Source: Streptomyces sp. ISL-43 (GTDB lineage Bacteria > Actinomycetota > Actinomycetes > Streptomycetales > Streptomycetaceae). Taken from it: DNA of 64,000 bases. Positions 27,166 through 43,281 of this stretch are shown here, in pieces. The notes below the pieces were generated by a model. It made no database searches, was not told where the DNA came from, and saw only the letters and a list, made by a program, of their open reading frames with translations. Location of the stretch: positions 278,573 to 342,572 of the forward strand of contig NZ_JAGGOT010000002.1 in NCBI RefSeq assembly GCF_018614195.1, read 5' to 3'. A program made the translations under genes and the position numbers. The first letter of the stretch is position 1. Each line of letters opens with the position of its first letter.

Positions 27166-27627
27166 TCAGTCCCGCGCCCGGCGGCGGCCCTCCGCGGCGG
27201 CCGGCGCGTCGGAGGACGCGTCGTCCCCGGCCCCGTCCGGCTCCAGGAACTGGCTGACGACCTTGCCGAAGACCTCGCGGCGGCCCTCGGGAACACCGAG
27301 CCAGCGGGCGAAGTCGTCGATGGTCGGCGGCTTGCCGCCGGGCGGCAGGTCCTGGGAGGCCAGCGGGAGCTCGTCGGGGCTGACCCGGCCGGACCGGATC
27401 AGCATGTCGCGCACGGAGACGCCCAGCAGCGGAGCCATCCGGCGCATGGTCTCCAGGTCGGGCATGCTCTGCCGCTGGAGCAACCGGGTGACGGCGGCCC
27501 GGTGAACCCCCGCCTCGTCGGCGATCCTCGACTTGCCGCCGCCTCTGGGGTTGTCGATGTCGTAGCCGCGCTGCCGCATCAGTCCTTCGACCCAGGCCGC
27601 GAACGCGTCCAATTCGAGAGTGCTCAT
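27166..27627 (-). CDS. XRE-family HTH regulator of the tail cluster (probable repressor)
   Basis: A 153-residue DNA-binding protein. A helix-turn-helix of the lambda-Cro/XRE type spans about residues 30-75 ([20 protein letters not shown], then [26 protein letters not shown]). The C-terminus is Ala/Asp-rich without an obvious LexA-type peptidase motif. The ATG has a GAGGAG site. It is divergent from the whiB-like operon. Its TATAAT promoter is directly followed by an 18-bp palindrome that recurs before the whiB-like operon and the tail operon, so I infer that it binds all three sites, including its own. The role as repressor rather than activator rests on operator position. Confidence 0.85.
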
Positions 27628-27671
27628 GTGCCGCTCCTCAAGTCCGCAGTCCGCACCATGAGATCACAGCC

Positions 27672-27689
27672 TACCGTGCTTGCGCGCAC
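27672..27689 (-). promoter_or_regulatory. Operator O1 at the regulator's transcription start
   Basis: TACCGTGC-TT-GCGCGCAC is the most diverged copy of the palindrome TTGCGYGC-N2-GCRCGCAA. The left arm matches 6 of 8 positions and the right arm 7 of 8. It lies immediately downstream of the regulator's -10 box, where binding would block initiation. Confidence 0.5.
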
Positions 27690-27692
27690 AGA

Positions 27693-27698
27693 ATTATA
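27693..27698 (-). promoter_or_regulatory. -10 box TATAAT of the XRE gene
   Basis: A perfect TATAAT on the minus strand, about 66 nt upstream of the ATG. No good -35 is seen 17-18 bases upstream. Start would fall at about 27686, inside operator O1. Confidence 0.55.
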
Positions 27699-27739
27699 CC
27701 CTTCACCAATTAGCCACACCTTAGGTAAAGGGATCTTGA

Positions 27740-27771
27740 TTGCGCGCTCGCACGCAACGTGTAACAGTGGG
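27740..27771 (+). promoter_or_regulatory. Operator O2 and promoter of the whiB-like operon
   Basis: The palindrome TTGCGCGC-TC-GCACGCAA (27740-27757) is followed by a conserved stretch containing TAACAG. The 32-bp element matches that at 29160-29191 at 27 positions. TTGCGC could be the -35 and TAACAG (16 bases later) a weak -10, so a bound regulator would cover the core promoter. Confidence 0.6.
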
Positions 27772-27812
27772 CTCGCCGTGAGCCACGGCAGTCCCACCGT
27801 CGCGGAGTCGCC

Positions 27813-28091
27813 ATGCCCTTTGTTCCGTACTCAGCCCCGCCCGACACCGCCCCCTCGCCCTGGCAGGCCGCCGCCGCCTGCGCCGCCCTCCCCGCGGACG
27901 TCGTCTTCGCCCGGCGCGCCAAGGACGCGGCCCCCGCGCTGCGCGCCTGCGCCGGCTGCCCGGTCCGGCGCGAGTGCGAAGAGGCCGTCGCGCCGTCCGA
28001 GAGCTGGTTCGACGGAGTCTGCGCCGGACGTCTGTGGCGCAACGGCCGGCCCGCCGCCATCCCCTCGCCCTCCGGGAGCCTCCGTGCCTGA
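27813..28091 (+). CDS. WhiB-like iron-sulfur transcription factor
   Basis: A 92-residue Wbl protein. The four cysteines Cys23, Cys46, Cys49 and Cys55 (C-x22-C-x2-C-x5-C) would hold a [4Fe-4S] cluster. The turn FDGVCAGRLWRNGR replaces the usual G[VI]WGG motif and is followed by basic residues. The ATG has a GGAG site. Phage-encoded WhiB proteins are known in actinophages. As first gene of a three-gene operon under operator O2, it probably acts as a second-level regulator (inference), perhaps activating the weak -10 promoters. Confidence 0.88.
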   Translation: MPFVPYSAPPDTAPSPWQAAAACAALPADVVFARRAKDAAPALRACAGCPVRRECEEAVAPSESWFDGVCAGRLWRNGRPAAIPSPSGSLRA

Positions 28092-28794
28092 CCGCACCGC
28101 CAGCGACACCGCACTCTGGATCGCCTCGCTCATCCGCCAGTTCCCCGAGCTCTGCGAGGAGCTGGCGCCCGGGCGCGCCACCCCCTTCGCGGCCGGCCTC
28201 CCCTCCCCCCGCACCCCGCGCGACGACGCGCTCGTACGCGAGGAGCGGCGCGAGGCGCTGATCGTCCGGCAGCGTCACGGCCTGTCCGCACCCGGCCACA
28301 GCGCCGCCCCCCTGCGCCTGCACGTCTCCGACGCCCTCCGCGACATCACCGACGGAGTGGTCGAGCTGGAGGAGGCCGTGTGCGCCCGGCTCGGGTTCCC
28401 GCGGCCCCGCCGCGCCCTGGTGCCCGTACGTCTGCGCAGGCTCGCCGCCCTGCTGGACGAGATCGCCGCCCATCCGGTCCTGGCCCGGCACGTGCGGGAC
28501 GAGCTGCGGCGCATGGCGCGCCGCTGTGCCCGCGCGCTCGGCGACACCGAGCAGGTGGTGCGGGTCTCCGGCCGCTGCCCGTGGTGCGACTCCGTGTCCC
28601 TGCGCGCCTTCCCCGACCGCCGGGCCGTGCTGTGCGTCAACCCGGCCTGCCGCTGCACCGACGAGGAGTGCGGCTGTCACGACGACCCGGCCTACCGCCA
28701 CCTGTGGCCCGAGAGCGGGTGGACCGCGCTGGCGTCCGACTCGGGCTGCCGCACCGAGGAACTCGACTCCGCGATGGAAGGCAACCCGCGATGA
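28084..28794 (+). CDS. Zinc-ribbon protein of the regulatory module
   Basis: A 236-residue protein from the GTG at 28084, overlapping the whiB-like stop by eight bases. The N-terminal two thirds are helical and Arg/Leu-rich. The C-terminal part has a Cys cluster: CPWCDS, CVNPACRC and EECGCHDD, consistent with a zinc ribbon plus additional Cys/His. I do not recognise a named family. Small Cys-rich proteins next to WhiB and HTH genes occur in Streptomyces phages and integrated elements. A role in transcription control or antitermination of the tail genes is a guess from context. Confidence 0.75.
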   Translation: MPDRTASDTALWIASLIRQFPELCEELAPGRATPFAAGLPSPRTPRDDALVREERREALIVRQRHGLSAPGHSAAPLRLHVSDALRDITDGVVELEEAVCARLGFPRPRRALVPVRLRRLAALLDEIAAHPVLARHVRDELRRMARRCARALGDTEQVVRVSGRCPWCDSVSLRAFPDRRAVLCVNPACRCTDEECGCHDDPAYRHLWPESGWTALASDSGCRTEELDSAMEGNPR

Positions 28795-29042
28795 CCCCTC
28801 CGCCCTCCCCTGTCTCCAGGTTCTCTCCGCTTCCCGCCCTGATCCCGGGGCCGCTGGCCGCTCACGAGGCCGGGGTCGCGCCCGCCACGATCCGCAAGTG
28901 GGTCCAGCTCGGGCGGCTGACGGCGGCCGGCAAGGCCGGGCGCGCGCAGCTGTTCCGGCTGGAGGACGTGTTCGCCGCCGAGCGCGATGCCAGCCGGCGC
29001 ACGCCGAGCGGGATGCGCGGGGCGGGGCCCGCCCCGGCCTGA
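28791..29042 (+). CDS. Small HTH (MerR/excisionase-like) protein
   Basis: An 83-residue protein starting at an ATG that overlaps the previous stop (ATGA). It has a winged-helix-like segment EAGVAPATIRKWVQLGRLTAAGKAGRAQLFRLEDV (about residues 23-57), typical of single-domain MerR or excisionase-type DNA-binding proteins. No integrase is present, so a classical excisionase role is unlikely. It is the last gene of the regulatory operon and is followed by a strong terminator. Confidence 0.75.
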   Translation: MTPPPSPVSRFSPLPALIPGPLAAHEAGVAPATIRKWVQLGRLTAAGKAGRAQLFRLEDVFAAERDASRRTPSGMRGAGPAPA

Positions 29043-29073
29043 CCGTCCTCCCACCACGCCCCCACCACCCGCG

Positions 29074-29118
29074 CCGGATGCCCGGCCTCCTTCCCGGAGG
29101 CCGGGCATCCGGCGTTTT
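29074..29118 (+). terminator. Terminator of the regulatory operon
   Basis: A perfect 17-bp stem (29074-29090 with 29096-29112, loop TTCCC) is followed by CGTTTTCG. It separates the whiB-like operon from the tail promoter at 29160. Confidence 0.8.
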
Positions 29119-29159
29119 CGAACCTTCACGGACCTCGGAAGAACCCACCGCCGAATTAG

Positions 29160-29191
29160 TTGCGCGCGCGCACGCACCATGTCACAGTTGG
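29160..29191 (+). promoter_or_regulatory. Operator O3 and promoter of the tail operon
   Basis: TTGCGCGC-GC-GCACGCAC (29160-29177) followed by CATGTCACAGTTGG repeats the O2 element, 27 of 32 bases identical. TTGCGC and TCACAG (16-bp gap) occupy -35 and -10 positions. The leader to the first tail gene is about 130 nt and holds no gene. Confidence 0.6.
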
Positions 29192-29322
29192 TGCAGCGGC
29201 AGAGCTGCGCCCGCAAGGCGGGACGCGGCACACCGCTCCGCGTCGGGCGGTGTCCGCCCCCCGCCCCCCTCCGGGCACCGCCCGACAGCCCCCTTCCACC
29301 CATCAGCCCGAGGTGAATCGTC

Positions 29323-29730
29323 GTGACCACTCCCCCGAGTGCCTTCCCCGACGTCGAGGCCCTGGTCGTCGACGTCCTCCAAGCTGATCCCGCGCTGTCC
29401 ACGGCCGTCGTCGCCGTCAGCCCGCCCGCCGGATTCGACGGCACCCAGCGGGCCGTCATGGTCAACCGGCGCGGCGGCGCCTGGACCGGCGACCTGCACG
29501 TGGACATCCCGCTGATCGAGTTCGAGGTGTACGGCCCTACCAAGGCCGCCGCGCACACGCTGGCCAATGCCGCCCGGCGGGCCCTGCTCGCCGCGCTCGG
29601 CAGGACGTACGGCTCGAACACCTTCACCGACGTCATCGAGCAGGACGGGCCGCGCTGGCTCCCGGACTACCTGTACCGGGGCGCCAACCGCTACGTCTGC
29701 GTGATCCAGGTGTCCCTCAGCGTCTTCTGA
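29323..29730 (+). CDS. Tail terminator/tail completion-like protein
   Basis: A 135-residue protein from a GTG with a GAGG site. It resembles siphophage tail terminator or head-tail completion proteins, with an N-terminal helix (DVEALVVDVLQAD), beta strands IPLIEFEVYG, a helix KAAAHTLANAARRALLAAL, and a final strand YVCVIQVSLSVF. In phages such a ring caps the tail tube. It is followed by the tube gene as in siphophages, which supports the call. Without a head, capping the finished tail would be its only structural job (inference). Confidence 0.65.
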   Translation: MTTPPSAFPDVEALVVDVLQADPALSTAVVAVSPPAGFDGTQRAVMVNRRGGAWTGDLHVDIPLIEFEVYGPTKAAAHTLANAARRALLAALGRTYGSNTFTDVIEQDGPRWLPDYLYRGANRYVCVIQVSLSVF

Positions 29731-29776
29731 CGCGCCCCTCGCCGGCCGCGCCCCCGCGCCCCGGCCCCCACAGACC

Positions 29777-29871: not shown

Positions 29872-30474
29872 ATGGCAGGAAACTCTTCCGAGATCCGCGT
29901 AGCCGGCAACGGTCGCCTCTTCGTCGCCGCCGCCGGCACGGCGCTGCCGACCGCCTTCACCGGCAAGCCGGACGTCGACTGGGGCGCCAACTGGAAGGAC
30001 CTCGGCTTCACCACCGCGGACGGCGTCACCTTCGCCAAGAAGGACAAGCTCGAGCCGGTCGACTCGTGGCAGGCCGTCAGCCCGGTGCACTTCACCTACT
30101 CGGACCGGGACCTGAGCATCAAGTTCGCGCTGCTCCAGTTCAACGAGCTGACGCTGCCGTTCTTCATGGGCGGCGGCGCTGTCGTCGACGAGGCCACGCC
30201 CGCCAACGGCATCTACCGCTACGACATCGCGGACGCGCCGAAGTCGGACGCCCGCGCCCTCGGCCTGGAGTTCACCGACACCAAGGCGAGCGACGGCTCG
30301 GTCGTGACCTACCGCTTCTACATCCCGCGCGGCCAGGTCACCGCCTCCGACGACATCAAGCTGGCCCGCAAGTCGGCGTCCACCCTGGGCATCACCTTCA
30401 CCGCCCTGGCCGCGGGCGACGACAAGCCGCTGGCGAGCTTCGTCATGAAGGACGGCGCGTACGCCGCCGTCTGA
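29872..30474 (+). CDS. Major tail (tail tube) protein
   Basis: A 200-residue protein, the expected size for a siphophage tube subunit. The beta-rich sequence has an N-terminal arm (IRVAGNGRLFVAAAGTALPTAF), the central VSPVHFTYSDRDLSIKFALLQFNELTLPFF, and the C-terminal SASTLGITFTALAAGDDKPLASFVMKDGAYAAV. It has the strongest ribosome site of the cluster (AAGGAG) and is followed by a 14-bp terminator stem, both consistent with high-copy expression. The order terminator protein, tube, chaperones, tape measure is the siphophage order. Confidence 0.8.
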   Translation: MAGNSSEIRVAGNGRLFVAAAGTALPTAFTGKPDVDWGANWKDLGFTTADGVTFAKKDKLEPVDSWQAVSPVHFTYSDRDLSIKFALLQFNELTLPFFMGGGAVVDEATPANGIYRYDIADAPKSDARALGLEFTDTKASDGSVVTYRFYIPRGQVTASDDIKLARKSASTLGITFTALAAGDDKPLASFVMKDGAYAAV

Positions 30475-30567: not shown

Positions 30568-30858
30568 ATGGCAGGCTTCGACGTCAACGCGGCCCGCGCC
30601 CAGCGCCAGGAGGCCCTCGGCCGCGCCTGGTCCTTCGAGCTGGACGGCGAGACGTACACCCTTCCCACCGAACTCACCCGGGCCGCCGCCAAGGGGCTGC
30701 GCGGGCTCGACGACAACGACGTGGACGGCCTGCTCCGGCTCCTCATGGGCGAGAAGCAGTTCACCCGCTTCGAGCAGCACGACGTCACGATGCAGGACAT
30801 CGCCGCGATCCTCGAGGCGTACGGCAAGGAGACCGGGCTCGGCCTGGGGGAAGGCTGA
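30568..30858 (+). CDS. Tail assembly chaperone, short form (gpG-like)
   Basis: A 96-residue acidic helical protein (TELTRAAAKGLRGLDDNDVDGLLRLLMGEKQFTRFEQHDVTMQDIAAILEAYGKETG), in the place and of the size of siphophage tail assembly chaperones that coat the tape measure. It ends GLGLGEG-stop. Two codons before the stop is a run of five G followed by AA, where ribosomes could shift -1 into the next frame to make the long form. Confidence 0.78.
   Translation: MAGFDVNAARAQRQEALGRAWSFELDGETYTLPTELTRAAAKGLRGLDDNDVDGLLRLLMGEKQFTRFEQHDVTMQDIAAILEAYGKETGLGLGEG
30846..30852 (+). promoter_or_regulatory. Probable -1 frameshift site
   Basis: GGGGGAA is read as G-GGG-GAA in frame. After slippage the ribosome continues in the -1 frame (R-L-S-L-V-E-F). 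The -1 frame has no ATG, GTG or TTG start near its beginning. The heptamer deviates from the ideal X-XXY-YYZ pattern at the A-site codon. Confidence 0.6.
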
Positions 30859-31268
30859 GCCTCGTCGAGTTCGTCGACGAACACGCCGAGGCCCTCGAAG
30901 CGGACCTGCTCCGCTATTACGGCAAGGACCTGCTGGACTGGCACCGCGGCGAGCTCTCCTCGCGGCGCCTCCAGGTCCTGCTGAAACACCTGCCGCGGGA
31001 CAGCTCCGTCAACCGGGAGCTGTTCGGTGAGGCGTCCGACTGGTCGGTGACCGACCACCTGCTGGCGGCGGCCGTGGACCACCTGGCGGCCGCCAACTGG
31101 ATGTTCGCCTCGGTCAACACGCCCGAGGACGAAGATCCGCCGGAGCGTCCCGATCCGGTGCCCCGTCCCGACGGCACGCCGTACACGGGCTCCGCCGGCG
31201 AGGGCGCCGCCCCGGAAACCGCGGAGCCGGCTCCCTCGGCGGAGACCCTCGTCCGGTTCTTCGGCTGA
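30849..31268 (+). CDS. Tail assembly chaperone, frameshift extension (gpT-like)
   Basis: A 139-residue extension in the -1 frame (LSLVEFVDEHAEALEADLLRYYGKDLLDWHRGELSSRRLQVLLKHLP...) ending ETLVRFFG. It would be made only as a fusion to the first 94 residues of the upstream gene, giving about 233 residues. This mirrors the lambda G/GT arrangement that is conserved in siphophages. The segment near LVRFFG is preceded by a Pro/Glu-rich linker. No independent start codon is available, so this is not a separate gene. Confidence 0.7.
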   Translation, partial: GRLSLVEFVDEHAEALEADLLRYYGKDLLDWHRGELSSRRLQVLLKHLPRDSSVNRELFGEASDWSVTDHLLAAAVDHLAAANWMFASVNTPEDEDPPERPDPVPRPDGTPYTGSAGEGAAPETAEPAPSAETLVRFFG

Positions 31269-31304: not shown

Positions 31305-32279
31305 TCAGCGGCCGCCCTCCGGGGCCACGGGCCGGCTCGCGCCGGACTTCGACTCCATCTCGTCCGCGAGCGCGCGCGCCCGGGCCGCCAGGCTCGGGCG
31401 ACCGGGCCCCGCGGGTGCCTGGGGGTCGGCGGCCGACCCCTGCGCGCGAGGCTGTACGGGGACGGAGTCCAGCGGGGGCACGATCGGCCGCCCGTTGCGG
31501 CGTACGACCTTGCGGCTCACCGGGGGCGTGCGCTTCTCCCGGATCTCCTGCACGGAGAGCAGTGCCCGGGCGGTGGCGCGCGGCGCCCGGCCCTCGTCGG
31601 CCGGTCCGTCGGGCTCGGCGGGCGGGCCGGTCGGACCGGACCCGGACGCGGCCTCCGCCGTCTCGCCGGACCCGGACGCGGCCTCCGCCGTCTCGCCGGA
31701 CTCGGCCGGCTCATCGGACTCGACCGTCTCATCGGGCTCGTCGTGCCGCCGCGACTGTCCGGCTGTCGCGTCGAGTTCGGAGGCGTGGGCGTGGCCGGTG
31801 TCCGACTGCCTGTCGAGGATGGCGTGGGCGCGGCGTACGCGCTCCTCGGCCTCGCGGACGGGAGCGGGTGGTTCGATCAGCGCGGTCACCGGCAGCCGGA
31901 TCACGTCGGCGCCGTGGCCGCCCGGTCCTTGACCGGGGCTCTGGCCCACGCCCAGGACCTGGCCCTGGCTCTTGCCCGCGCTCCTCGGCTCGCCGCGGCG
32001 GCCGGCGGTACCCGCGGCGTAGGCCTCGGCGACCCGCTTCTCGAACTCGCGCCGCAGGCGGGGCAGGTCCTCGCCCATGGCCTCGGCCCAGCCCGCGGTG
32101 AAGGACGCGGTCTCGCGGCGGTCGAGCTCGGAGCGCGGTATCAGAACGAGGTCCTCGGGCGCGTATCCCGCTCCGTGGACGAGTTCGGACAACCGGGCGA
32201 ACAGATGGGGCAGGTCAGCCGCTACTTCGAGCCAGTCGACCGCATGTTCACGCCCCCTGATACCGGTATCCCTGTCCAT
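31305..32279 (-). CDS. Antisense-oriented hypothetical protein inside the tail cluster
   Basis: I do not recognise this 324-residue protein. Residues 1-90 are structured (DWLEVAADLPHLFARLSELVHG; RRETASFTAGWAEAMGEDLPRL). The rest is largely disordered, with Gln/Gly, Glu/Ser and Pro/Ala stretches and a tandem GETAEAASGS duplication, then a short conserved-looking part LLSVQEIREKRTPPVSRKVVRRNGRP. The motif RRETASFTAGWAEAM resembles TRETRAYTLGWNDAL of the 63-residue protein encoded divergently at 32577. It is the only minus-strand gene among the structural genes. It might be a regulator, chaperone or immunity factor; the sequence does not decide this. Confidence 0.7.
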   Translation of the reverse strand: MDRDTGIRGREHAVDWLEVAADLPHLFARLSELVHGAGYAPEDLVLIPRSELDRRETASFTAGWAEAMGEDLPRLRREFEKRVAEAYAAGTAGRRGEPRSAGKSQGQVLGVGQSPGQGPGGHGADVIRLPVTALIEPPAPVREAEERVRRAHAILDRQSDTGHAHASELDATAGQSRRHDEPDETVESDEPAESGETAEAASGSGETAEAASGSGPTGPPAEPDGPADEGRAPRATARALLSVQEIREKRTPPVSRKVVRRNGRPIVPPLDSVPVQPRAQGSAADPQAPAGPGRPSLAARARALADEMESKSGASRPVAPEGGR

Positions 32280-32576: not shown

Positions 32577-32768
32577 ATGACCCAGCAGGCTGAGGGCTCA
32601 CCGCAGACCACGCTTCGAGAACGCCTCAGCCGGCTCCTGGACGGACCCGTCCCCCTCGACAAGCGGGCCCTGCTCGACTCCCTGTACGCCGAGGTCACCA
32701 CCCGCGAGACCCGCGCGTACACGCTGGGCTGGAACGACGCCCTCACCGAGATGCGCGGCGCCTCCTGA
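32577..32768 (+). CDS. Small conserved-looking protein with RET-x-x-T-x-GW motif
   Basis: A 63-residue protein starting MTQQAEGSPQTTLRERLSRLL and ending TRETRAYTLGWNDALTEMRGAS. It is the first plus-strand gene after the LexA-like box and is followed by an intrinsic terminator (32789-32814), so it is likely a separately transcribed unit. Its C-terminal motif is shared with the protein on the opposite strand. Function unknown; size and position would suit a small regulatory or assembly factor. Confidence 0.65.
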   Translation: MTQQAEGSPQTTLRERLSRLLDGPVPLDKRALLDSLYAEVTTRETRAYTLGWNDALTEMRGAS

Positions 32769-32814: not shown

Positions 32815-32846
32815 CGCATTTCCGCCCGCTGATGAATGGAGGAGAG

Positions 32847-33572
32847 ATGGCGCGAGATCTCCAGAAGATCGACAGTGACCTCGCCTCGGCAGAAAGCACC
32901 GTCAAGACACTCGAGGCCAGCAGTTCCTCACATGCGACGCATATCGTCAATCAGGGCACCAGTATCGCCGAGATACGGAAAGCCCTGGGTTTCGGTACCA
33001 ACGCGAAAGCTCCCGACACGGCACAGCGCCTCACGCAGCTGGAATCCGATGTCGCGAAGGCGCGAGACAAGATCAAGATTCACACCTGGGGCCTGTACGC
33101 CCTGGCGACGAACGCCCTGCTCTTCAAGCTCGACGTACAGCTCCTCACCGTGTCCATGCAGGCCGTCAAATTCGACCTCTCCGTCCTGAAGAAATGGGAC
33201 GAGAAGAGCTTCAAATGGACCGGAGCGCTGAACACGAAGCTCGCCGAGTGGCGGCTCGCCGTCAAGGACAAGTTCTTCCAGAACGCCGCCCAGAGGCAGC
33301 GGGACAAGGAGGCGAGCGCCAAAGCCGACAAGGACCTCGCCAGCGCGATCAAGAAGCTCCCCCCGATCGTCGAGAAGCACGACGGCCGCATCAAGAAGAT
33401 CGAAGACGCGCTGAAATCGGTCCGGGACAGCGCCAAGAAGGCCACGGATTCCAGTACCGGCCGCAAGCACGGAATCGATTCGGCCAGACCGACCCTCAAG
33501 CCGGTGACCCAAGACGTCAGGGCTCTGCGCGAGGCCGTCAATCAGCTCGCCGGAGCCCTCGGCGGTTTCTGA
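32847..33572 (+). CDS. Coiled-coil tail protein upstream of the tape measures
   Basis: A 241-residue Lys/Ala-rich helical protein. The N-terminus (DLQKIDSDLASAESTVKTLEAS) and C-terminal half (KEASAKADKDLASAIKKLPPIVEKHDGRIKKIEDALKSVRDSAKK) look like coiled coils. A hydrophobic part lies near residues 82-115 (GLYALATNALLFKLDVQLLTVSM). The ATG at 32847 has GGAGG just upstream; an earlier in-frame ATG (32832) lacks a ribosome site. It precedes the tape-measure-like genes and could be a third tape-measure segment or a tail-tip component (inference). Confidence 0.65.
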   Translation: MARDLQKIDSDLASAESTVKTLEASSSSHATHIVNQGTSIAEIRKALGFGTNAKAPDTAQRLTQLESDVAKARDKIKIHTWGLYALATNALLFKLDVQLLTVSMQAVKFDLSVLKKWDEKSFKWTGALNTKLAEWRLAVKDKFFQNAAQRQRDKEASAKADKDLASAIKKLPPIVEKHDGRIKKIEDALKSVRDSAKKATDSSTGRKHGIDSARPTLKPVTQDVRALREAVNQLAGALGGF

Positions 33573-36106: not shown

Positions 36107-37015
36107 ATGGCCGAGACCACACAGACGTACACCGCCGATCTCGAACCCGGCTCGCTCATCACCCAGGACGGGCAGATGCAGTGGGCCGGGATTCTTTTCG
36201 GCCCCGGCACCCCCTACACCATCGAGAAGGCGGGCCTCAGCGGCTGGGAGGACTTGCCCGAGTTCGACAGCTCCGACGCCGAACGCCCCACCGGCCACGG
36301 CTCCTGGCCCGGCGCCCGCTACGCCAAGCCCCGCAAAGTCGGCGGCACCGTCTGGATGGTCCCCGAGCGGGGCGCCTCCCTGGCCACCGTCCGGGCCCTG
36401 CGCCAGGCGCTGACCCTCGGCGACGAGGAGCGCTGGCTCGCGGTCCGGCTGCACGGCGAGATCCTGGCCGTACGGGCCCGGGTCAGCCAGCGCGTCGTCC
36501 CGGCCGACCGGGTGTACGCCACCCAGGGCGCGGCCAAGGCGTCCGTGCAGTGGCTGGCCACCGACCCGCGCCGCTACCTGGTCGGCGAGCAGTCGGCGAT
36601 CGTGTCCGCACCGGAGCCGGAGAGCGGTCTGACCTGGCCGCTGGTCTGGCCCCTGAGCTGGGGCACGGCCTCCAGGACGGGCGACGCGAGCGCCGACAAC
36701 GACGGTTCCGCGCCCACCCACCCGGTCATCACCTTCCGCGGCCCCTGCGGCACGCCCTCGGTGACGGAGCGGCTCAGCCGCCGCCGGCTGCGCTACGCGA
36801 TCGACCTGACCTCCGGCGACGAGCTGGTCGTGGACACCGCGGCCGGCACGGTCACCCTCAACGGCACCGCCTCCCGCCGGCACACGGCCACCGCGGACAG
36901 CGGCCCGGAAGAGCTGTTCACCTTCGAACCGGGCCGGGCCGAGCTCTCCTTCCGCCCGGACAGCGCCGCGTCCGGCGCCACCATGTCCGTCCGCTGGCGC
37001 AGCGCGGAGTGGTAG
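36107..37015 (+). CDS. Distal tail (Dit)-like protein
   Basis: A 302-residue protein in the position and of the size of siphophage Dit, which forms the hub ring at the tail tip. The N-terminal domain has TIEKAGLSGWEDLPEFDSSDAERPTGHG, close to the tail-family signature with the charged P..G.. loop. The C-terminal galectin-like half has THPVITFRGPCGTPSV and DLTSGDELVVDTAAGTVTLNGT. The next genes encode fibre-type and Tal-like proteins, supporting a tip complex. Confidence 0.78.
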   Translation: MAETTQTYTADLEPGSLITQDGQMQWAGILFGPGTPYTIEKAGLSGWEDLPEFDSSDAERPTGHGSWPGARYAKPRKVGGTVWMVPERGASLATVRALRQALTLGDEERWLAVRLHGEILAVRARVSQRVVPADRVYATQGAAKASVQWLATDPRRYLVGEQSAIVSAPEPESGLTWPLVWPLSWGTASRTGDASADNDGSAPTHPVITFRGPCGTPSVTERLSRRRLRYAIDLTSGDELVVDTAAGTVTLNGTASRRHTATADSGPEELFTFEPGRAELSFRPDSAASGATMSVRWRSAEW

Positions 37016-37146: not shown

Positions 37147-38334
37147 ATGCCGCTCCACACCAGCTGGCTCTCCCCGACCGGCCAGACCCGCGAGAACACC
37201 CGGGTCAGCCAGATCGGCGCCACCACCCCGATCAACCCGCAGCAGGCCCGTTCGGGCATCCTGCCGGGCTCGTACGGCGGCCAGCACCGGGTCTCCGGGT
37301 TCTGGACGGACGGCGCGTCCGCGATGACCCTCAACGTCAGCAACGGCCGGGCCGTCATCCAGGGCCTGCACGCCCAGGGCTTCTACCAGGTGACCCTGGA
37401 CGGGGGCGCCGTGCTCACCGTCGCCGACGGCGACGCCCAGTACGGCCGCGTCGACCTGCTCGTCCTGCGCGTCTACGACGCCTCGTACGACACGTCCGGC
37501 AAGAACGAGGCGGCGGTCGAGATCATCCGCGGCACCCCCGCCGCCACCCCGGTCGCCCCGGCCACCCCGCCGCTCTCCCTCCCCCTGTACGAGATCGCCG
37601 TCCCGGCCGGCGCCAGCGCCGGCAAGGGCGGCATCGTCTGGAACGGGGCCCTCAAGGACCTGCGCACCACCACCGTCGCGATCGGCGGCATTGTGCCCGC
37701 CTTCGGCGACACCGGTGCCGGCGCCTACCCGGGCCAGTACCAGGACGGCGCCGCCGCCGTCCTGCAGCGCTGGGACGGCTCCGCCTGGGTCCCGTACCCG
37801 TCCGCGCTGGGCGGTATCGCCCCCAAGGGCGCCTTGACCACCGCCAGTTACGTCGGCCAGTACCGCGACACCCCGCAGCGCGTGCTCCAGCGGTGGAACG
37901 GCACCGCCTGGCTGCCGGCCTTCCCCGGGCCGCTCTTCGCCGAGAACCTCGACGCCGGCTTCACCACCTCCACGACCTACTCCCAGACGCTGCAGGACAC
38001 CAGCGTCGCCCAGGTGCAGATCACCTTCCCGGCGCCGGTCTCGGGCGCCGTCCTGCTCACCTACGGGGCCCGCATGGGGCCGGTCGGCAACGCCGCGGCC
38101 GCCGCCTTCACGTCCGTACGGGTGACCCAGGGGGCCACGGAGATCTGGGCCCCGGACGACGAGCGCGGCGTGTGCACCGCCGGCGACCCGGCGACCTCGG
38201 CGTCGACCACCACGCGGCTGGCGGGCCTGACCGCCGACCTCCCGTACACGGTGACCCTGATGCACCGCGTCAGCGTCGCGGGCGTCAAGACCTGGTTCGA
38301 CAACATCTTCCTCCGCGTCGAGCCCCTGATCTGA
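37147..38334 (+). CDS. Receptor-binding/tail fibre protein 1
   Basis: A 395-residue protein. The N-terminal 190 residues (SWLSPTGQTRENTRVSQIGATTPINP..., AQYGRVDLLVLRVYD, APATPPLSLPLYEIAVPAGAS) closely resemble those of the next gene and probably attach it to the tail tip. A middle part repeats the motif YPGQYQDG...LQRWDGSAW and YVGQYRDTPQRVLQRWNGTAW. The C-terminal domain (about 280-395) is beta-rich (PVSGAVLLTYGARMGPVG...TYTVTLMHRVSV-like) and differs entirely from the neighbour. The likely role is binding of the target cell surface. Confidence 0.72.
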   Translation: MPLHTSWLSPTGQTRENTRVSQIGATTPINPQQARSGILPGSYGGQHRVSGFWTDGASAMTLNVSNGRAVIQGLHAQGFYQVTLDGGAVLTVADGDAQYGRVDLLVLRVYDASYDTSGKNEAAVEIIRGTPAATPVAPATPPLSLPLYEIAVPAGASAGKGGIVWNGALKDLRTTTVAIGGIVPAFGDTGAGAYPGQYQDGAAAVLQRWDGSAWVPYPSALGGIAPKGALTTASYVGQYRDTPQRVLQRWNGTAWLPAFPGPLFAENLDAGFTTSTTYSQTLQDTSVAQVQITFPAPVSGAVLLTYGARMGPVGNAAAAAFTSVRVTQGATEIWAPDDERGVCTAGDPATSASTTTRLAGLTADLPYTVTLMHRVSVAGVKTWFDNIFLRVEPLI

Positions 38335-38383
38335 GTTCCGGCCGCACCTGGTCCCACCCCGCACAGCTTTGAAGGAGAACTCC

Positions 38384-39481
38384 GTGAACGTGCGATCCGC
38401 CTGGCTCCCGATCACCGGCCAGACCCGCTCCGACACCCGCGTCGCCTCGCTCGGCGCCCTCACTCCCACCTCCCCGGTCGCCAGCCGGTCCGGCATCCTG
38501 CCCGGTTCGAGTGACGGCAAGTGGCGGATCTCCGGCTTCACCGTCGTCGGCACGACCGCGATGGGCGCGACCGTCTACCCCGGCCGGGCCGTCATCCAGG
38601 GCACCGACAGCCAGGGCGCGTACCCCGTCGTCCTCACCCAGCCCCTGAACCTGACCTTCACCGTCGGCCACGCCCAGTACGGCCGCGTCGACCTCATCGT
38701 GCTGCGCGTCTACGACGACGAGTACGACGCCTCCGGCCGCACCGAGGCCGATGTCGAGGTCATCCGCGGCGTGCCGGCGGCGAACCCGGTCGCCCCCGCG
38801 ACCCCGCCGCTCTCCCTCCCCCTCTACACCGTCGCCGTGCCCGCCGGCACCAGCGCGGGCAACGGCGGCATCGTCTGGGCCGGCGCCCTGGCCGGCCAGC
38901 GCACGGCCACCGTCGCCATCGGCGGCATCCTTCCGGTCACCTCCGACACGACGATCGGCGCCTACCCGGGCCAGTACCGGGACATGGACGGCGCCCTCCA
39001 GCGCTGGGACGGCACCGCCTGGACGCCGTACCCGCCGAAGGCCGCGTGGCAGAACTGGACGCCGGTGTGGACCACCTACACCGGCAACGCCCCGCCCTCC
39101 TTCGGCAACGCCGAGATCACCGCCCGCTGGATCCAGCAGGGCCCGACCGTGCACATGAACTTCGCCATCGCCTTCGGCACCACCACCAACTTCGGCGCCG
39201 GCGCCACCAGCGGCGACAACTGGCGGTTCACCCTGCCGGTCAAGGCGGCGTCCGCGGTCAAGTGCGCCGGCTTCGCCGACCTGATGATGGGGACGCGCGA
39301 GCGCGCCGTCGCCCGGATCCGCTGCACCTCGACGACCTTCTTCGAGCTGGAGATCTCCTCCGGCATGCCGAGCGGCGACTCCGTCGTGATCGCCGGCATC
39401 ACGGACGCCGTCAGCCCGTGGACCTGGGCGGCGGGCCACACCATCATCGGCAGCGCCACCTACGAGGCGGCGACCCAGTGA
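38384..39481 (+). CDS. Receptor-binding/tail fibre protein 2
   Basis: A 365-residue protein from the GTG at 38384, which has GAAGGAG six bases before it. A TTG five codons upstream is a worse start. The N-terminal 190 residues are a clear duplicate of the upstream protein (GILPGS, AQYGRVDLIVLRVYDDEYDASG, PATPPLSLPLYTVAVPAG). The motif YPGQYRDMDGALQRWDGTAW occurs once. The C-terminal part is different (WQNWTPVWTTYTGNAPPSFGNAEITARWIQQG...), resembling receptor-binding tips of actinophage fibres. It overlaps the next gene as GTGA. Confidence 0.72.
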   Translation: MNVRSAWLPITGQTRSDTRVASLGALTPTSPVASRSGILPGSSDGKWRISGFTVVGTTAMGATVYPGRAVIQGTDSQGAYPVVLTQPLNLTFTVGHAQYGRVDLIVLRVYDDEYDASGRTEADVEVIRGVPAANPVAPATPPLSLPLYTVAVPAGTSAGNGGIVWAGALAGQRTATVAIGGILPVTSDTTIGAYPGQYRDMDGALQRWDGTAWTPYPPKAAWQNWTPVWTTYTGNAPPSFGNAEITARWIQQGPTVHMNFAIAFGTTTNFGAGATSGDNWRFTLPVKAASAVKCAGFADLMMGTRERAVARIRCTSTTFFELEISSGMPSGDSVVIAGITDAVSPWTWAAGHTIIGSATYEAATQ

Positions 39482-40581
39482 GCACCGAGACCCCGTACCG
39501 CGCGATCTTCTGCGACGTACGGACCGACCGGACCATCGACATCCTCCCGCTGCGGGACGTGTCCATCGACGACTACATCGGCAAGCCGGGCGCCCTGTCC
39601 GGCAACATCCCGGTGCCCGACGCGGCCATCGCCGCCCGGGTCCGCCGGATCGAGGAGGGCCGTACCGCCGTCTACCTGGAGCGCGGCGGCGACCTGTGGT
39701 GGGGCGGGATCATCTGGACCAGCACGCTGCAGAGCAGCGGCCGGGGCGTCATCACCCTCAGCATCCAGGCGGCGACCTTCGACTCGTACGCGGGCCGCCG
39801 GCGCATCCGCCAGACCTTCGGCCACACGACCCCCACCGACCAGCTGGAGCTGGTCCGGGAGCTGTGGCGCAAGATGCAAGCCTCCGTGGGCGGCGACATC
39901 GGAGTCACCTACGGGGACGAGACCTCCGGCGTCCTGCGCACCGAGTCCTGGCGCGACGGCGACGAGGTCCTGTACTCCGAGGCCATCGAGGCACTGGCCT
40001 CCGCGGAGAACGGCATCGAGCACCAGATCTCCGTCTACCGCGACCCGGTCACCGGGGCCCGCACCCGCCAGCTGCGGCTCGGCAGCCCGCGCATCCACAC
40101 GGGCGTCACCGACCTGGTACTGGACCGGCCCGGCGCGATCCTCTCGTACGCCTTCCCGCGCGACGCGACCCGCGGCGGCACCACCGCCCGGGCCCGCGGC
40201 GCCTCGGTCAACAGCAACCAGGCCGAGGAGTCGCGGCCGGTGTACTCGAAGGAGATGGTCGCGGACGACCTGATCACCGGCGGCTGGCCGCGCATCGACC
40301 TGTCCTCCGACCACAACACGATCAGCGACGGGAACGCCCTGAACCTCCGTGCGGCCGGCGAACTCGCCCAGGCCCGCGGGGCCGTCGTCATCCCCGAGAT
40401 CACGATCCGCCTGGGCAGCGAGGTACCGCCGTCCCTGCTGGGCCGGACCGTGCGCATCCGGATCACCGACGAATGGCACCCCCAGGGTCTCGACGCGCGC
40501 TACCGCATCATCGGCGTCAAGGTCAGCCCGCCCGAGCGGGGCCGCCCGGACACCGCCGATCTCTACCTAGAGGAGGCCTGA
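39478..40581 (+). CDS. Tail-associated (Tal/gp27-like hub) protein
   Basis: A 367-residue protein from a GTG overlapping the previous stop. The sequence (YRAIFCDVRTDRTIDILPLRDVSIDDYIGKPGALSGNIPVPD...YLERGGDLWWGGIIWT) fits the minor tail or hub protein family found after Dit in actinophages. The C-terminal part (HPQGLDARYRIIGVKVSPPERGRPDTADLYLEEA) is typical of it. It would complete the tail-tip hub. It shares one base with the next gene (TGATG). Confidence 0.72.
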   Translation: MSTETPYRAIFCDVRTDRTIDILPLRDVSIDDYIGKPGALSGNIPVPDAAIAARVRRIEEGRTAVYLERGGDLWWGGIIWTSTLQSSGRGVITLSIQAATFDSYAGRRRIRQTFGHTTPTDQLELVRELWRKMQASVGGDIGVTYGDETSGVLRTESWRDGDEVLYSEAIEALASAENGIEHQISVYRDPVTGARTRQLRLGSPRIHTGVTDLVLDRPGAILSYAFPRDATRGGTTARARGASVNSNQAEESRPVYSKEMVADDLITGGWPRIDLSSDHNTISDGNALNLRAAGELAQARGAVVIPEITIRLGSEVPPSLLGRTVRIRITDEWHPQGLDARYRIIGVKVSPPERGRPDTADLYLEEA

Positions 40582-41294
40582 TGCCCCAACTGCCCGAGGA
40601 CATCATCGACCGGCTGACCGCCATGGAACGCCGGATCCAGCAGCTGTCGACCGCCGTCAACACCCGCCCCGCGCTCAACACCGTCAGCGGCGGCACCCTG
40701 AAGATCTCGGACGGCGGCTCGCTGTCCGTGGAGGAGCCGGGCGGCACCCGGATCCTGGGCGTCGGCTTCTGGTCCTCCACCGAGTACGGCATGGAGATCA
40801 AGCGGCAGAGCGGCAAGACCGCGCTCAGCATCCGCAACGCCGTCACCGGCACCTACGACCAGGCCGTGCGCGTGTTCGACGCCTACAACCACGAGGTCCT
40901 CGCGGACGACGTGGTCACCGGCGGCCTGGCCCGCCCCTGGCTCGCGATGCTGCCGCCGCAGGACACCAGCACCACCCGCTGGCCGCAGACCAACGCGACC
41001 GCCTGGACCACCGTCGCCCGCTCCTTCAACCCGCTGTGGCAGCCCCGCCTGCGCGTGTACTGCTACACCGCCGCCGCGGCCGGCGTCACCGGGCAGGTAC
41101 GGATCCTCGTGGACGGCGTCCAGTGGGGCGACCCGGTCACCACCGGGGCGATCCTCGACCGCACCGACAAGGCCGCCGACGACTTCAACGCCCGGTTCGG
41201 CAGCCTGGTCAAGGTCGAGATCCAGGCCATGGTCACCAGCGGCACCGGGCTCGTCTACGCCCAGCCGCTGATGATGTACGGCACCCAGAGCTGA
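40581..41294 (+). CDS. Minor tail/tip protein
   Basis: A 237-residue protein. A short N-terminal coiled coil (EDIIDRLTAMERRIQQLSTAVNT) suggests trimerisation. A stretch with Gly/Ser turns (SGGTLKISDGGSLSVEEPGGTRI) and a beta-rich C-terminal domain (VRILVDGVQWGDPVTTG...) follow. This composition is common in tip or fibre-attachment proteins. It is coupled to the Tal-like gene and contains no enzymatic motif. Confidence 0.65.
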   Translation: MPQLPEDIIDRLTAMERRIQQLSTAVNTRPALNTVSGGTLKISDGGSLSVEEPGGTRILGVGFWSSTEYGMEIKRQSGKTALSIRNAVTGTYDQAVRVFDAYNHEVLADDVVTGGLARPWLAMLPPQDTSTTRWPQTNATAWTTVARSFNPLWQPRLRVYCYTAAAAGVTGQVRILVDGVQWGDPVTTGAILDRTDKAADDFNARFGSLVKVEIQAMVTSGTGLVYAQPLMMYGTQS

Positions 41295-41328
41295 CCCCGC
41301 GCCGCCCACCGCAAGGAGACCCCCGCAC

Positions 41329-41694
41329 ATGAACATCGACCCCGCTCAGCCCTGGGGCATCGCCATCGACTACGCGGGCCGCGCCACGCTCACCGAGGCC
41401 GGCCACAGCATCCAGGTCCGCGTGTACGACGCCGGCCTCGGCGGCACCCTGGAACTGGACCCCGTCAGCGGCTACCCGTCCGTGTACGTCACCGCCCAGT
41501 TCACCGAGACCGGCGACCTCGGCACGCAACTGCGCGGCTCCGGCCAGGTCGTCCTCGACCCCCCGCCCGAGGGCCCGGTCACCCCGGACCGCACGGCCGT
41601 GGCCTCCGCGGTCGCCGCCGCACTGGCCGACTTCGAAGCCCGCACAGCGGCGTACGCGGCGCTGTGCGCCACGTACAGCCCCGTCGGCGTCTGA
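41329..41694 (+). CDS. Small tail-cluster protein
   Basis: A 121-residue protein starting MNIDPAQPWGIAIDYAGRATLTEAGHSIQVRVYDAG, mostly beta in the first 75 residues, then a helix rich in Ala (VASAVAAALADFEARTAAYAALCATY). Not recognised. It lies between the tip genes and the endolysin and is probably a minor structural component (inference). Confidence 0.6.
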   Translation: MNIDPAQPWGIAIDYAGRATLTEAGHSIQVRVYDAGLGGTLELDPVSGYPSVYVTAQFTETGDLGTQLRGSGQVVLDPPPEGPVTPDRTAVASAVAAALADFEARTAAYAALCATYSPVGV

Positions 41695-41766
41695 GGGGCG
41701 CGGGGCCCGGGGCTGAACCCCGGCCACGCCGCCGCACCCGCACACCCACCGGTACACCCCGCCCCG

Positions 41767-41787
41767 AGCCACCCCCGGCCGGGGCTT
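41767..41787 (+). terminator. Weak hairpin before the endolysin gene
   Basis: AGCC and CCCCGG arms with CCGGGG and CT follow the preceding gene and run into TTT. It has almost no loop, so the call is weak. Confidence 0.35.
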
Positions 41788-41811
41788 TCGCATGCCCGAA
41801 GGAGACCTGCC

Positions 41812-42702
41812 ATGGCCACCCCCCTCACCGCCGACACCCTGCTGGAAGCACTGCGCGCGGAGGGCGTCGACGTCGTGGAGCACGACGGCTGGCGCACCCA
41901 CAACCGCAACCACAAGGGCGCCTGGGGCCCGGTGAACGGCGTAGTGATCCACCACACCGTCAGCACCGGTACGGACAGCAGCGTCGCCCTCTGCCGCGAC
42001 GGCTACGCCGAGCTGCCCGGCCCGCTCTGCCACGCCGTCATCGACAAGGCCGGCCGCGTGCACCTGATCGGCCACGGCCGCACCAACCACGCCGGTCTGG
42101 GCGACAGCGACGTCCTGGACGCGGTCGTCGCCGAGTCCGCGCTGCCCGAACCCCGCCGCAACGACACCGACGGCAACGCCCACTTCTACGGGTTCGAGTG
42201 CGTCAACCTCGGCGACGGCCGCGACCCTTGGCCCGCCGCCCAGCTCGACGCCATCGAGCGCGCCTCGGCCGCCCTGTGCCGGGCCCACGGCTGGCAGGCC
42301 CCCTCGGTGATCGGCCACAAGGAGTGGACCGGCACCAAGGTCGACCCGCGCGGTTTCACCATGCAGGACATGCGCGCCCGGATCGCCGCCCGCCTCTCGG
42401 CCGGCCCGGGCCAGGGCACCGGGCCCACCCCGCCGCCGGCCGACCCCGGCCGCCACCAGCCCTTCCCCGGTGCCGGCTTCTTCACCGCCCTCCCGCACTC
42501 GCCGGTCGTCACCGCCATGGGCGAGCGCCTGGTCGCCGAGGGCTGCTCCGACTACGCCGAGGGTCCCGGCCCGCAGTGGACGCAGGCCGACCGCCGCTCG
42601 TACGCGAAGTGGCAGCGCAAGCTCGGCTTCACCGGGTCCGACGCCGACGGCTGGCCGGGCCGCACCTCCTGGGACGCCCTGAAGGTCCCGTACTCCGGCT
42701 GA
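41812..42702 (+). CDS. Endolysin: PGRP-type amidase with C-terminal wall-binding domain
   Basis: A 296-residue lysis enzyme without signal peptide. The N-terminal amidase-2/PGRP domain spans about 20-190, with zinc-ligand candidates His47 or His48 (VIHHT), His169 (IGHKEWT) and Asp178 (KVDPRG). Glu171 is the likely catalytic partner. A Pro/Gly linker (196-218) leads to a C-terminal peptidoglycan-binding-like domain (QWTQADRRSYAKWQRKLGFTGSDADGWPG). It is followed by holin genes. It would cleave the amide bond in the producer's peptidoglycan to release particles. Confidence 0.85.
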   Translation: MATPLTADTLLEALRAEGVDVVEHDGWRTHNRNHKGAWGPVNGVVIHHTVSTGTDSSVALCRDGYAELPGPLCHAVIDKAGRVHLIGHGRTNHAGLGDSDVLDAVVAESALPEPRRNDTDGNAHFYGFECVNLGDGRDPWPAAQLDAIERASAALCRAHGWQAPSVIGHKEWTGTKVDPRGFTMQDMRARIAARLSAGPGQGTGPTPPPADPGRHQPFPGAGFFTALPHSPVVTAMGERLVAEGCSDYAEGPGPQWTQADRRSYAKWQRKLGFTGSDADGWPGRTSWDALKVPYSG

Positions 42703-42739
42703 CCGACCGTCACCGTTCGACCGAAAGAAGGCACCACCC

Positions 42740-43021
42740 ATGTCCGAAGCCGCGAAGCGCACCCTGCGCACACTCGTCCAGACCGCCCTGGCGATAGCCG
42801 TCCTACTGCCCGCCGTCGTGGACGCCTCGGGCGTCCCCGCCGCGCTGCCCTGGGTCGCCGGCGCCCTCGCCGCCGCCGGCGCCCTCACCCGGGTGATGGC
42901 CCTGCCCGGCGTACAGGCCGTACTGCCCGGCTGGCTGCGCACGGAGTGGCCGTACGACGCCGACCGCACGCTGCTCGCCCTCATCGCCCGCGAGGAACGG
43001 GCGAAGGACGAGCGCGCATGA
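42740..43021 (+). CDS. Holin-like two-helix membrane protein
   Basis: A 93-residue protein with two hydrophobic helices (LVQTALAIAVLLPAVVDASGV and LPWVAGALAAAGALTRVMALPGV), a short turn and a charged C-terminus (REERAKDERA). The size and the position between endolysin and XhlA-like gene fit a holin that opens the membrane for the endolysin. It overlaps the next gene as ATGA. Confidence 0.75.
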   Translation: MSEAAKRTLRTLVQTALAIAVLLPAVVDASGVPAALPWVAGALAAAGALTRVMALPGVQAVLPGWLRTEWPYDADRTLLALIAREERAKDERA

Positions 43022-43281
43022 CGGAACCTCACATGCCCGACCCGCTGTCCGTGGCCGTCGAACTGGAGCGGCTGCGCGGCACCATGGAGGCCGGCTTCGC
43101 CCGCGTCGACGGCTCGCTGGCCCTCCTGGTCCAGCGCAGCGACCAGACCGACCGTCAACTCGCCGACCACGAATCGCGGCTGGACGCCCTGGAGCGCGCG
43201 CGCTGGCCGCTGGCCAGCGTCACCGCGCTCGCCGCCGTCTCGGCGATCGCCGTGACGGCCTGGCAGATCACCGGCCAATAG
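43018..43281 (+). CDS. XhlA-like lysis accessory protein
   Basis: An 87-residue protein with an N-terminal amphipathic coiled coil (VAVELERLRGTMEAGFARVDGSLALLVQRSDQTDRQLADHESRLDALERA) and one C-terminal membrane helix (WPLASVTALAAVSAIAVTAWQI). This is the layout of XhlA-type proteins that act with holins in Gram-positive phages. It is the last gene of the tail cluster. Confidence 0.72.
   Translation: MTEPHMPDPLSVAVELERLRGTMEAGFARVDGSLALLVQRSDQTDRQLADHESRLDALERARWPLASVTALAAVSAIAVTAWQITGQ

What the first reader, a model, noticed from the sequence alone, without database searches (positions are those of the whole stretch)
27166..43281. Headless siphophage-tail (F-type tailocin-like) cluster inserted between the str operon and rpoBC
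Seen: about 16 kb with regulators, tail terminator, tube, chaperones with frameshift, tape-measure-like proteins, Dit-like, Tal-like, two fibres, endolysin, holin and XhlA-like genes, and no capsid, portal, terminase, integrase or replication gene. Known: non-contractile F-type bacteriocins (F-pyocins, monocins) have this content. Inference: this is a vertically maintained phage-tail bacteriocin of Streptomyces sitting between rpsL and rpoC, a position that disfavours frequent mobility. Whether it is already described in the literature I cannot tell from sequence.
Basis: partly seen in the sequence, partly recalled or inferred. Interest (0 to 1): 0.88.

Follow-up and report, generated by a model that had tools for sequence, protein, structure and literature searches.

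The report
Headless phage tail in Streptomyces chromosomes
Many Streptomyces bacteria carry, often beside their core ribosome and RNA-polymerase genes, a well-kept set of virus-tail genes with no virus head, probably a protein weapon released when the cell bursts, though I found no report that the particle has been seen or tested.

Summary
Window 27166-43281 encodes a non-contractile (siphophage) tail plus an endolysin, led by a divergent repressor and WhiB-like, zinc-ribbon and MerR-like proteins. No capsid, portal, large terminase or integrase gene was recognised in it, and the whole genome gave no Phage_capsid or Phage_portal match. The locus recurs in Streptomyces: the zinc-ribbon marker is in 80 of 392 genomes, and in 65 of the 80 best named loci rpsL is beside it. 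The chaperone frameshift site is the same in all 27 clusters examined. A palindromic operator candidate precedes the repressor, the regulator operon and often the tail operon, but none of six other cluster genes tested. Tail tip, lysis end and repressor resemble temperate Raleighvirus-type phages; the tube half does not. Descent broadly follows the host tree, with exchange, loss (remnants in several relatives) and copies elsewhere. Best explanation: an F-type tailocin-like particle, derepressed and released by lysis, that binds relatives through tandem fibres. Particle, killing and trigger are untested. New details: a hypervariable gene before the tape measure, and a regulator without match in phage records. 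Ten searches of an open-access library listed no description of it.

The parts
27166..27627 (-). XRE-type repressor, divergent from the rest
   Evidence: phrog_3949 transcriptional repressor 1.3e-11; 29-36% identity, in the rows listed, to repressors of Streptomyces phages incl. Raleighvirus
27740..27757 (+). palindromic operator candidate TTGCG-N8-CGCAA between repressor and WhiB genes
   Evidence: exact match; such sites (<=2 mismatches) precede XRE in 104 of 111 and WhiB in 85 of 88 distinct upstream stretches, 2.7% (70 of 2584) of random stretches; binding not shown
27813..28091 (+). WhiB-like regulator
   Evidence: PF02467 4.2e-6, over cut-off
28084..28794 (+). conserved regulator-like protein with C-terminal zinc-ribbon-like cysteines, marker of the locus
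   Evidence: no match in 50,697 phage records at E<=0.01; no Pfam match over cut-off and no NCBIfam match; 80 of 392 genomes; model pLDDT 82, no PDB match at E<=0.001
28791..29042 (+). MerR-like HTH protein
   Evidence: phrog_2474 1.1e-11
29160..29177 (+). second operator candidate, 146 bp upstream of the tail terminator gene
   Evidence: 1 mismatch; similar sites in 58 of 106 (<=2 mismatches) or 84 of 106 (<=3) distinct stretches upstream of the terminator gene
29323..29730 (+). tail terminator
   Evidence: phrog_123 6.5e-21
29872..30474 (+). major tail tube protein
   Evidence: PF25681 1.7e-58, phrog_117 3.8e-35
30568..30858 (+). tail assembly chaperone (g)
   Evidence: phrog_10551 4.2e-28
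30568..31268 (+). frameshifted chaperone (gT), -1 shift inferred at CTGGGGGAAG just before the g stop
   Evidence: phrog_5813 1.4e-24 on the -1 frame; sequence identical and -1 frame open in 27 of 27 clusters examined
31305..32279 (-). conserved minus-strand gene of unknown function
   Evidence: hits in 43 of 80 named loci; no Pfam/PHROG/NCBIfam match
32577..32768 (+). small conserved gene of unknown function
   Evidence: hits in 40 of 80 named loci
32832..33572 (+). coiled-coil protein at a hypervariable gene position before the tape measure
   Evidence: ORFs at this position median 25% identical (11 of 16 clusters usable) against 58-90% for other cluster genes
33604..34797 (+). tape measure protein 1
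   Evidence: phrog_3981 6e-28
34794..36056 (+). tape measure protein 2 (related to the first)
   Evidence: phrog_3981 9.9e-18; shared 66-bp stretch, 76% identical
36107..37015 (+). distal tail protein (Dit)
   Evidence: phrog_5577 2.7e-79, PF22768 2e-10
37147..38334 (+). fibre / receptor-binding protein 1
   Evidence: phrog_3398 3.1e-60; predicted fold's best viral match is a Streptomyces phage minor tail protein, TNF-like lectins among PDB rows
38387..39481 (+). fibre / receptor-binding protein 2, tandem paralogue
   Evidence: phrog_3398 5.8e-62; 300 bp at 79% identity, spacing 1237
39478..40581 (+). minor tail protein at the Tal position
   Evidence: phrog_1885 3.8e-61; 48% identity to phage ToastyFinz minor tail protein
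40581..41294 (+). protein of unknown function after the Tal-position gene
   Evidence: phrog_9849 1.4e-54
41329..41694 (+). small conserved protein of unknown function
   Evidence: hits in relatives; no family
41812..42702 (+). N-acetylmuramoyl-L-alanine amidase endolysin
   Evidence: PF01510 8.2e-23, phrog_880 4.7e-73
42740..43021 (+). holin-like small membrane protein (inferred)
   Evidence: phrog_4316 unknown function 1.2e-22; hydrophobic segment 8-37
43018..43281 (+). XhlA-like small protein (inferred), right end of cluster
   Evidence: phrog_5225 unknown function 1.9e-29; hydrophobic segment 63-84

Best explanation
The locus is a domesticated non-contractile phage tail (F-type tailocin-like) of Streptomyces. 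It most likely descends from a mosaic temperate phage, with tail tip, lysis end and repressor of Raleighvirus type, that lost head, packaging, replication and integration genes. The XRE repressor is proposed to sit on palindromic operators before its own gene, the WhiB/zinc-ribbon/MerR operon and the tail operon. On an unknown trigger it lets go; the tail is built (tube, terminator, frameshifted chaperone, tape measures, Dit, tandem fibres, tip proteins) and the endolysin with small membrane proteins lyses the producing cell or hyphal compartment. The released tails bind surface structures of related bacteria and probably kill by breaching the envelope. Shown here: gene content, lack of recognisable head genes, conservation, operator pattern, remnants, phage affinity. 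Inferred: repressor-operator binding, frameshifting, particle formation, lysis release, killing.
For: Tail and lysis genes by profile; gene order from tape measure to lysis much as in phage ToastyFinz and repressor homology to the same phage group. No PF05065 or PF04860 match in the whole own genome; in 29 other genomes no match within 0.5 Mb of a cluster on the same contig. Conservation: marker in 80 of 392 genomes, rpsL beside it in 65 of the 80 best named loci, slippery site and open -1 frame in 27 of 27 clusters examined. Median dN/dS in 16 clusters 0.20-0.32 for XRE, zinc-ribbon, gG and the last gene, 0.38-0.59 for terminator, Dit, TMP1, endolysin and tube. Operator candidates before three transcription units and in 0 of 528 stretches before six other cluster genes. 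Fibre C-terminus varies and resembles phage receptor-binding folds.
Against: No particle, induction or killing data; F-type membership rests on homology. Fibre dN/dS of about 0.86 and the hypervariable gene's 1.45 are distorted by GC-rich codon bias and poor alignment. 312 of 392 genomes lack the marker and some keep only remnants, so any benefit is conditional. Tube, terminator, chaperone and tape measure gave no tblastn match (E<=1e-4) in the ToastyFinz stretch, so the ancestor was not simply a Raleighvirus. The fibre proteins match PHROGs filed under head and packaging (phrog_3398; phrog_9534 'head protein' at about 1e-6; phrog_5339), and the MerR-like HTH weakly matches terminase small subunits (0.002-0.005) and excisionases (0.02-0.07); I read these as tail and HTH similarity. 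The fibre model is moderate (pLDDT 72), its best viral match has TM 0.41-0.45, and its PDB list holds unspecific beta-sandwich rows such as Cry toxins at TM about 0.2. The operator is weaker at the tail promoter (58 of 106), and the Raleigh phage repressor region lacks this motif. Whole-genome head-gene searches covered two families only.
Confidence: 0.72

Rival explanations
1. A headless tail particle is made, but its main job is not killing rivals: for example self-directed lysis in development or stress, or delivery of a cargo protein encoded at the hypervariable position, as contractile systems of Streptomyces act inside the producer.
For: Streptomyces contractile systems act in the producer's own cell death (PMC10020575 title and start of abstract in listing; passage in PMC10598620). 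The hypervariable gene before the tape measure could be cargo.
Against: Variable fibre C-termini with phage receptor-binding folds and a lysis gene fit release and outside binding. No TTA codon in the genes listed, unlike the bldA-controlled contractile cluster (PMC8910223 passages).
Confidence: 0.16
2. A decaying prophage remnant without function.
For: Truncated remnants exist at the same place in some relatives (G011, G018, G083, G074; G008 partial at a contig end), and 312 of 392 genomes lack the marker.
Against: In the window all frames are open; order is conserved, the frameshift site is identical in 27 of 27 clusters examined, median dN/dS is at most 0.59 for regulators, terminator, tube, chaperones, TMP1, Dit and endolysin, and operators are conserved.
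Confidence: 0.05
3. A tail module that serves another genome: a satellite or helper element that joins heads supplied in trans, or a prophage with head genes elsewhere.
For: The tail terminator, normally the joining point for heads (recalled), is kept.
Against: No PF05065 capsid or PF04860 portal match anywhere in the own genome; no integrase in the cluster. Other capsid and portal families were not searched genome-wide.
Confidence: 0.04

Closest known systems
F-type tailocins: F-pyocins (Pseudomonas), monocin (Listeria), rhizoviticin (Allorhizobium)
   Same: Non-contractile, headless tail; rhizoviticin likewise joins a regulator block to a tail and lysis block without head genes (PMC10811719 abstract and passages).
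   Different: Actinophage-type tail in another phylum; WhiB and zinc-ribbon regulators, two tape-measure genes and a hypervariable gene before them are not mentioned for those systems in the passages read. No killing shown here.
Streptomyces temperate phages of the Raleighvirus group (ToastyFinz, Raleigh, SoJo)
   Same: Order tape measure-Dit-fibre-minor tail protein-endolysin-two small genes; Dit, fibres, minor tail protein, phrog_9849 protein, endolysin end and last gene match there; minor tail protein 48% identical; related repressor.
   Different: Phages have capsid, connector and serine-integrase genes, one tape measure and one fibre at this place; tube, terminator, chaperones and tape measure show no match in ToastyFinz, the tube's listed phage matches are 27-31% identical; zinc-ribbon regulator has no match in phage records.
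Streptomyces contractile injection systems (SLP / CIS)
   Same: Phage-tail-derived structures widespread in the genus (PMC8505568 start of abstract in listing; PMC8910223 passages).
   Different: Those are contractile; no sheath family appears among this cluster's matches, and the genes listed here have no TTA codon.

Membership tests
F-type tailocin | Siphophage tail genes: tube, terminator, chaperone frameshift, tape measure, distal tail protein | tested here: met
   (frameshift inferred from sequence)
F-type tailocin | No contractile sheath | tested here: met
   no sheath family among the matches shown for the cluster's proteins (for tape measure 1 only the best 25 of 51 PHROGs were shown)
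F-type tailocin | No head, packaging, replication or integration genes | tested here: met
   whole-genome PF05065 and PF04860 negative. Against: weak HTH similarity to terminase small subunits and excisionases, and the 'head and packaging' label of PHROGs matched by the fibre proteins
F-type tailocin | Receptor-binding fibres that vary between strains | tested here: met
   alignment A4 and identities, between species; fold matches
F-type tailocin | Lysis genes for release | tested here: inconclusive
   endolysin clear; holin only inferred
F-type tailocin | Dedicated regulation, silent until triggered | tested here: inconclusive
   repressor and conserved operator pattern; no expression data
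F-type tailocin | Headless flexible tail particles by electron microscopy | not testable with these tools
   needs induced lysates
F-type tailocin | Kills related bacteria without replicating | not testable with these tools
   needs spot tests
Complete prophage | Capsid/portal/terminase and integrase genes present | tested here: not met
Contractile injection system / R-type tailocin | Sheath gene | tested here: not met
   none among the matches

The most novel reading that the evidence does not exclude
The Streptomyces tail is a non-contractile delivery device with an exchangeable payload or partner: the hypervariable coiled-coil gene fixed immediately upstream of the tape measure (often with a hydrophobic segment) encodes a cargo, pore-former or self-protection factor that changes with the lineage while the tail stays constant, all under a lysogeny-type repressor switch.
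Probability: 0.2. Interest if true: 0.85.

Novelty: new variant of a known kind. Interest (0 to 1): 0.7.

Why it matters
Streptomyces are studied for small-molecule antibiotics and for contractile injection systems. A non-contractile headless tail whose marker gene is in about a fifth of the genomes sampled, often beside rpsL, would be a further, protein-based means of competition. Type strains named here could test it at once, and its natural history (phage-type repressor kept, head lost, repeated decay, exchange at a fixed place) can be followed across dozens of species.

Tried and rejected
Fold search of the zinc-ribbon regulator model: no PDB match at E<=0.001. PDB sequence searches of tube and fibre: nothing at E<=0.1. 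Rfam at gathering score: nothing. Sigma-70 promoter and terminator scans: no more than shuffles. PADLOC on ten proteins (six from the window, four from other occupants of the interval): only weak matches. Operator of phage Raleigh: the tailocin palindrome is not there at two mismatches or fewer; other palindromes are. Strict cospeciation rejected: 8 of 18 strong core splits conflict. 'Never had the cluster' rejected for G074, G083 and G011, whose intervals hold 292, 990 and 1438 bases matching intact clusters; the other 13 of 16 cluster-free intervals fetched show none. A looser operator pattern was discarded because 31% of random stretches matched it; the stricter one was used.

Rows dropped before counts: five of 16 ORFs at the hypervariable position (L036, L155, L159, L166, L168), because my ORF caller over-extended them (they are still in the 26); L161 and L162 left out of the tree comparison because they are not beside rpoC, leaving 25 of 27 clusters, some genes having only 22-23; upstream stretches shorter than 250 bases or identical to another left out. 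The 27 clusters are those with the same full gene set; more distant types (L038, L043, L045-L050, L164, L171, L177-L183) were not checked for the frameshift site. The 16 intervals were picked by me, not at random.
Full report
WHAT IS THERE. The region 27166-43281 begins with a minus-strand repressor gene and continues with plus-strand regulators, a non-contractile tail set (interrupted by one minus-strand gene) and a lysis end. Profile searches give tail terminator, tube, chaperone pair, two related tape-measure proteins, Dit, two tandem fibre-like proteins, a minor tail protein at the Tal place, a phrog_9849 protein and an amidase endolysin. Two small last genes match PHROGs of unknown function and carry a hydrophobic segment; calling them holin and XhlA-like is inference. 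No sheath, capsid, portal, large terminase, replication or integrase family was among the matches shown, with these labels to discuss: the fibre proteins match phrog_3398, and more weakly phrog_9534 and phrog_5339, which PHROGs files under head and packaging, yet the ToastyFinz gene that they hit lies between the genes hit by Dit and by the minor tail protein; and the MerR-like protein weakly resembles terminase small subunits and excisionases, as HTH proteins do. The whole own genome gave no match to Phage_capsid PF05065 or Phage_portal PF04860. Among the 30 genomes searched 9 had matches to each; on contigs that also hold a cluster none lies within 0.5 Mb of it (nearest G167, about 0.5 Mb), and those of G041, G081 and G103 are on other contigs of fragmented genomes.

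HOST.

DISTRIBUTION AND PLACE. The tube protein is found in 31 of 150 genomes (own included) at E<=0.001, many of the weaker ones probably ordinary prophage tails. Positions of rpsL and rpoC and maps of fetched stretches put the cluster inside the rpoC-rpsL interval in nine of the 91 same-genus genomes of that set: G000, G003, G004, G015, G025, G066, G068, G076 and G079. The zinc-ribbon protein, which has no match in 50,697 phage records at E<=0.01, marks the locus: 80 of 392 genomes of the genus have it at E<=1e-10. A scan of named genomes found at least 137 relatives; in the best 80, rpsL lies in the same stretch in 65, the XRE repressor in 78, MerR in 78, WhiB in 63, the tube in 70. Of the 15 without rpsL several are short contigs. 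Of the 20 stretches fetched, four (L161, L162, L164, L171) show neither rpsL nor rpoC, and neither do the seven lower-scoring ones fetched whole (L177-L183): the more diverged the cluster, the more often it sits elsewhere. Some clusters elsewhere share flanks with each other, so there are further fixed sites.

DECAY AND INHERITANCE. G011 and G018 keep only regulator genes and the last gene at the site. G083 keeps fragments of repressor, fibre/Tal region and last gene. G074, whose RpoC is rounded to 100% identical, keeps 292 bases matching intact clusters, in the region of the two small last genes, and its left flank aligns 67 bases into the repressor gene. G008 keeps part, at a contig end. Of 16 cluster-free intervals tested, three hold such remnants and 13 none. 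Distances of 17 cluster genes correlate with rpoC (Mantel r 0.55-0.81, 22-25 clusters per gene), and 8 of 22 splits are shared, but 8 of 18 strong core splits are contradicted by strong rpoC splits. I read this as descent that broadly follows the host, with loss and exchange; rpoC is a single-gene yardstick.

SELECTION. In 16 related clusters median protein identity is 90% (chaperone g), 86% (repressor, terminator), 84% (Dit), 81% (tube, tape measure 1, endolysin), 65% (fibres) and 58% (phrog_9849 protein). Median dN/dS is 0.20-0.87 for all cluster genes but the hypervariable one (1.45); rpsL gives 0.05. In GC-rich genomes synonymous change is compressed, so only the ranking is trusted. The frameshift site reads CTGGGGGAAG in all 27 clusters examined, with the -1 frame open beyond; the shift itself is inferred from phage chaperones (recalled knowledge).

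HYPERVARIABLE GENE. Between the chaperone and tape measure 1 lies, in most clusters, a gene of about 190-340 codons (one 137; five over-extended by my caller), coiled-coil-like, with median identity 25% among 11 usable of 16. A hydrophobic segment passed a simple threshold in 19 of 26 ORFs at this place, not in the window's own. Profile matches are weak, some of them to tape-measure and tail families. Its role is open: tape-measure accessory, payload or self-protection.

REGULATION. A palindrome of the form TTGCGYGCNCGCWCGCAA lies at 27740-27757 between repressor and WhiB genes and, with one mismatch, at 29160-29177 before the tail operon. With at most two mismatches it occurs upstream of XRE in 104 of 111 distinct stretches, WhiB 85 of 88, terminator 58 of 106 (84 at three mismatches), and in none of 528 stretches upstream of MerR-like, tube, g, tape measure 1, Dit and endolysin genes; random 360-bp stretches match in 2.7%, a figure that includes the real sites. 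Repressor and WhiB stretches overlap, and the species are related, so counts are not independent. The repressor resembles repressors of Raleighvirus-type and other Streptomyces phages at 29-36% identity; Raleigh also has a divergent Cro-repressor arrangement, though with other palindromes. No TTA codon occurs in the genes listed.

FIBRE. Fibre N-termini are conserved and C-termini diverge. The AlphaFold model of fibre 1 is moderate (pLDDT 72); its best viral match is a minor tail protein of Streptomyces phage Mojorita (E 7e-25, TM 0.41-0.45). PDB rows include a Bdellovibrio domain (target TM 0.52) and TNF-like lectins (target TM 0.61-0.64), beside unspecific rows such as Cry toxins and lambda central fibre at TM about 0.2.

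LITERATURE. In ten searches of the open-access library no title or abstract start that I saw listed describes a non-contractile tailocin in Streptomyces or this locus; some lists were cut. I saw passages of PMC13102240, PMC10811719, PMC8910223 and PMC10598620. The rhizoviticin paper calls F-type tailocins rare, naming F-pyocin and monocin as the exceptions among known ones. Preprints and most subscription journals were not searchable, so absence from print is not claimed.

VERDICT. A real, widespread, maintained headless tail locus, F-type tailocin-like in the features that sequence could decide (lysis and regulation remain partly open); function as a weapon likely but untested.

Noticed in passing
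L054:3423-9079, L068:2018-7461: In other Streptomyces the rpoC-rpsL interval holds another gene set: a Crp-like regulator, unknown proteins of about 250-330 and 710 residues and, in L054, an M48 peptidase; similar gene sizes recur in several intervals. The interval looks like a site with alternative occupants.
   Followed up: partly
G012 (L042, L062, L063): The cluster is split: rpsL, repressor and WhiB near 1.67 Mb, tail genes and last gene near 8.67-8.69 Mb, zinc-ribbon gene near 8.97 Mb, rpoC near 5.45 Mb. Large rearrangement or misassembly.
   Followed up: no
L095: The record titled Microtetraspora glauca NRRL B-3735 has the contig length (187,317) of G076:C9, a genome of the window's genus; the record name is probably wrong.
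   Followed up: no
L037, L040, L038, L108, L111, L114, L115, L117-L120: The regulator block is inverted relative to the tail genes in one group of species.
   Followed up: no
window 37147-39481: The two fibre genes are tandem duplicates; in L154-L160 extra space between Dit and Tal hits suggests more fibre copies.
   Followed up: partly
G041 C225 and C182: rpoC, the last cluster gene and a partial repressor lie on one contig while the rest of the cluster is on a separate 16-kb contig; assembly gap or rearrangement.
   Followed up: no
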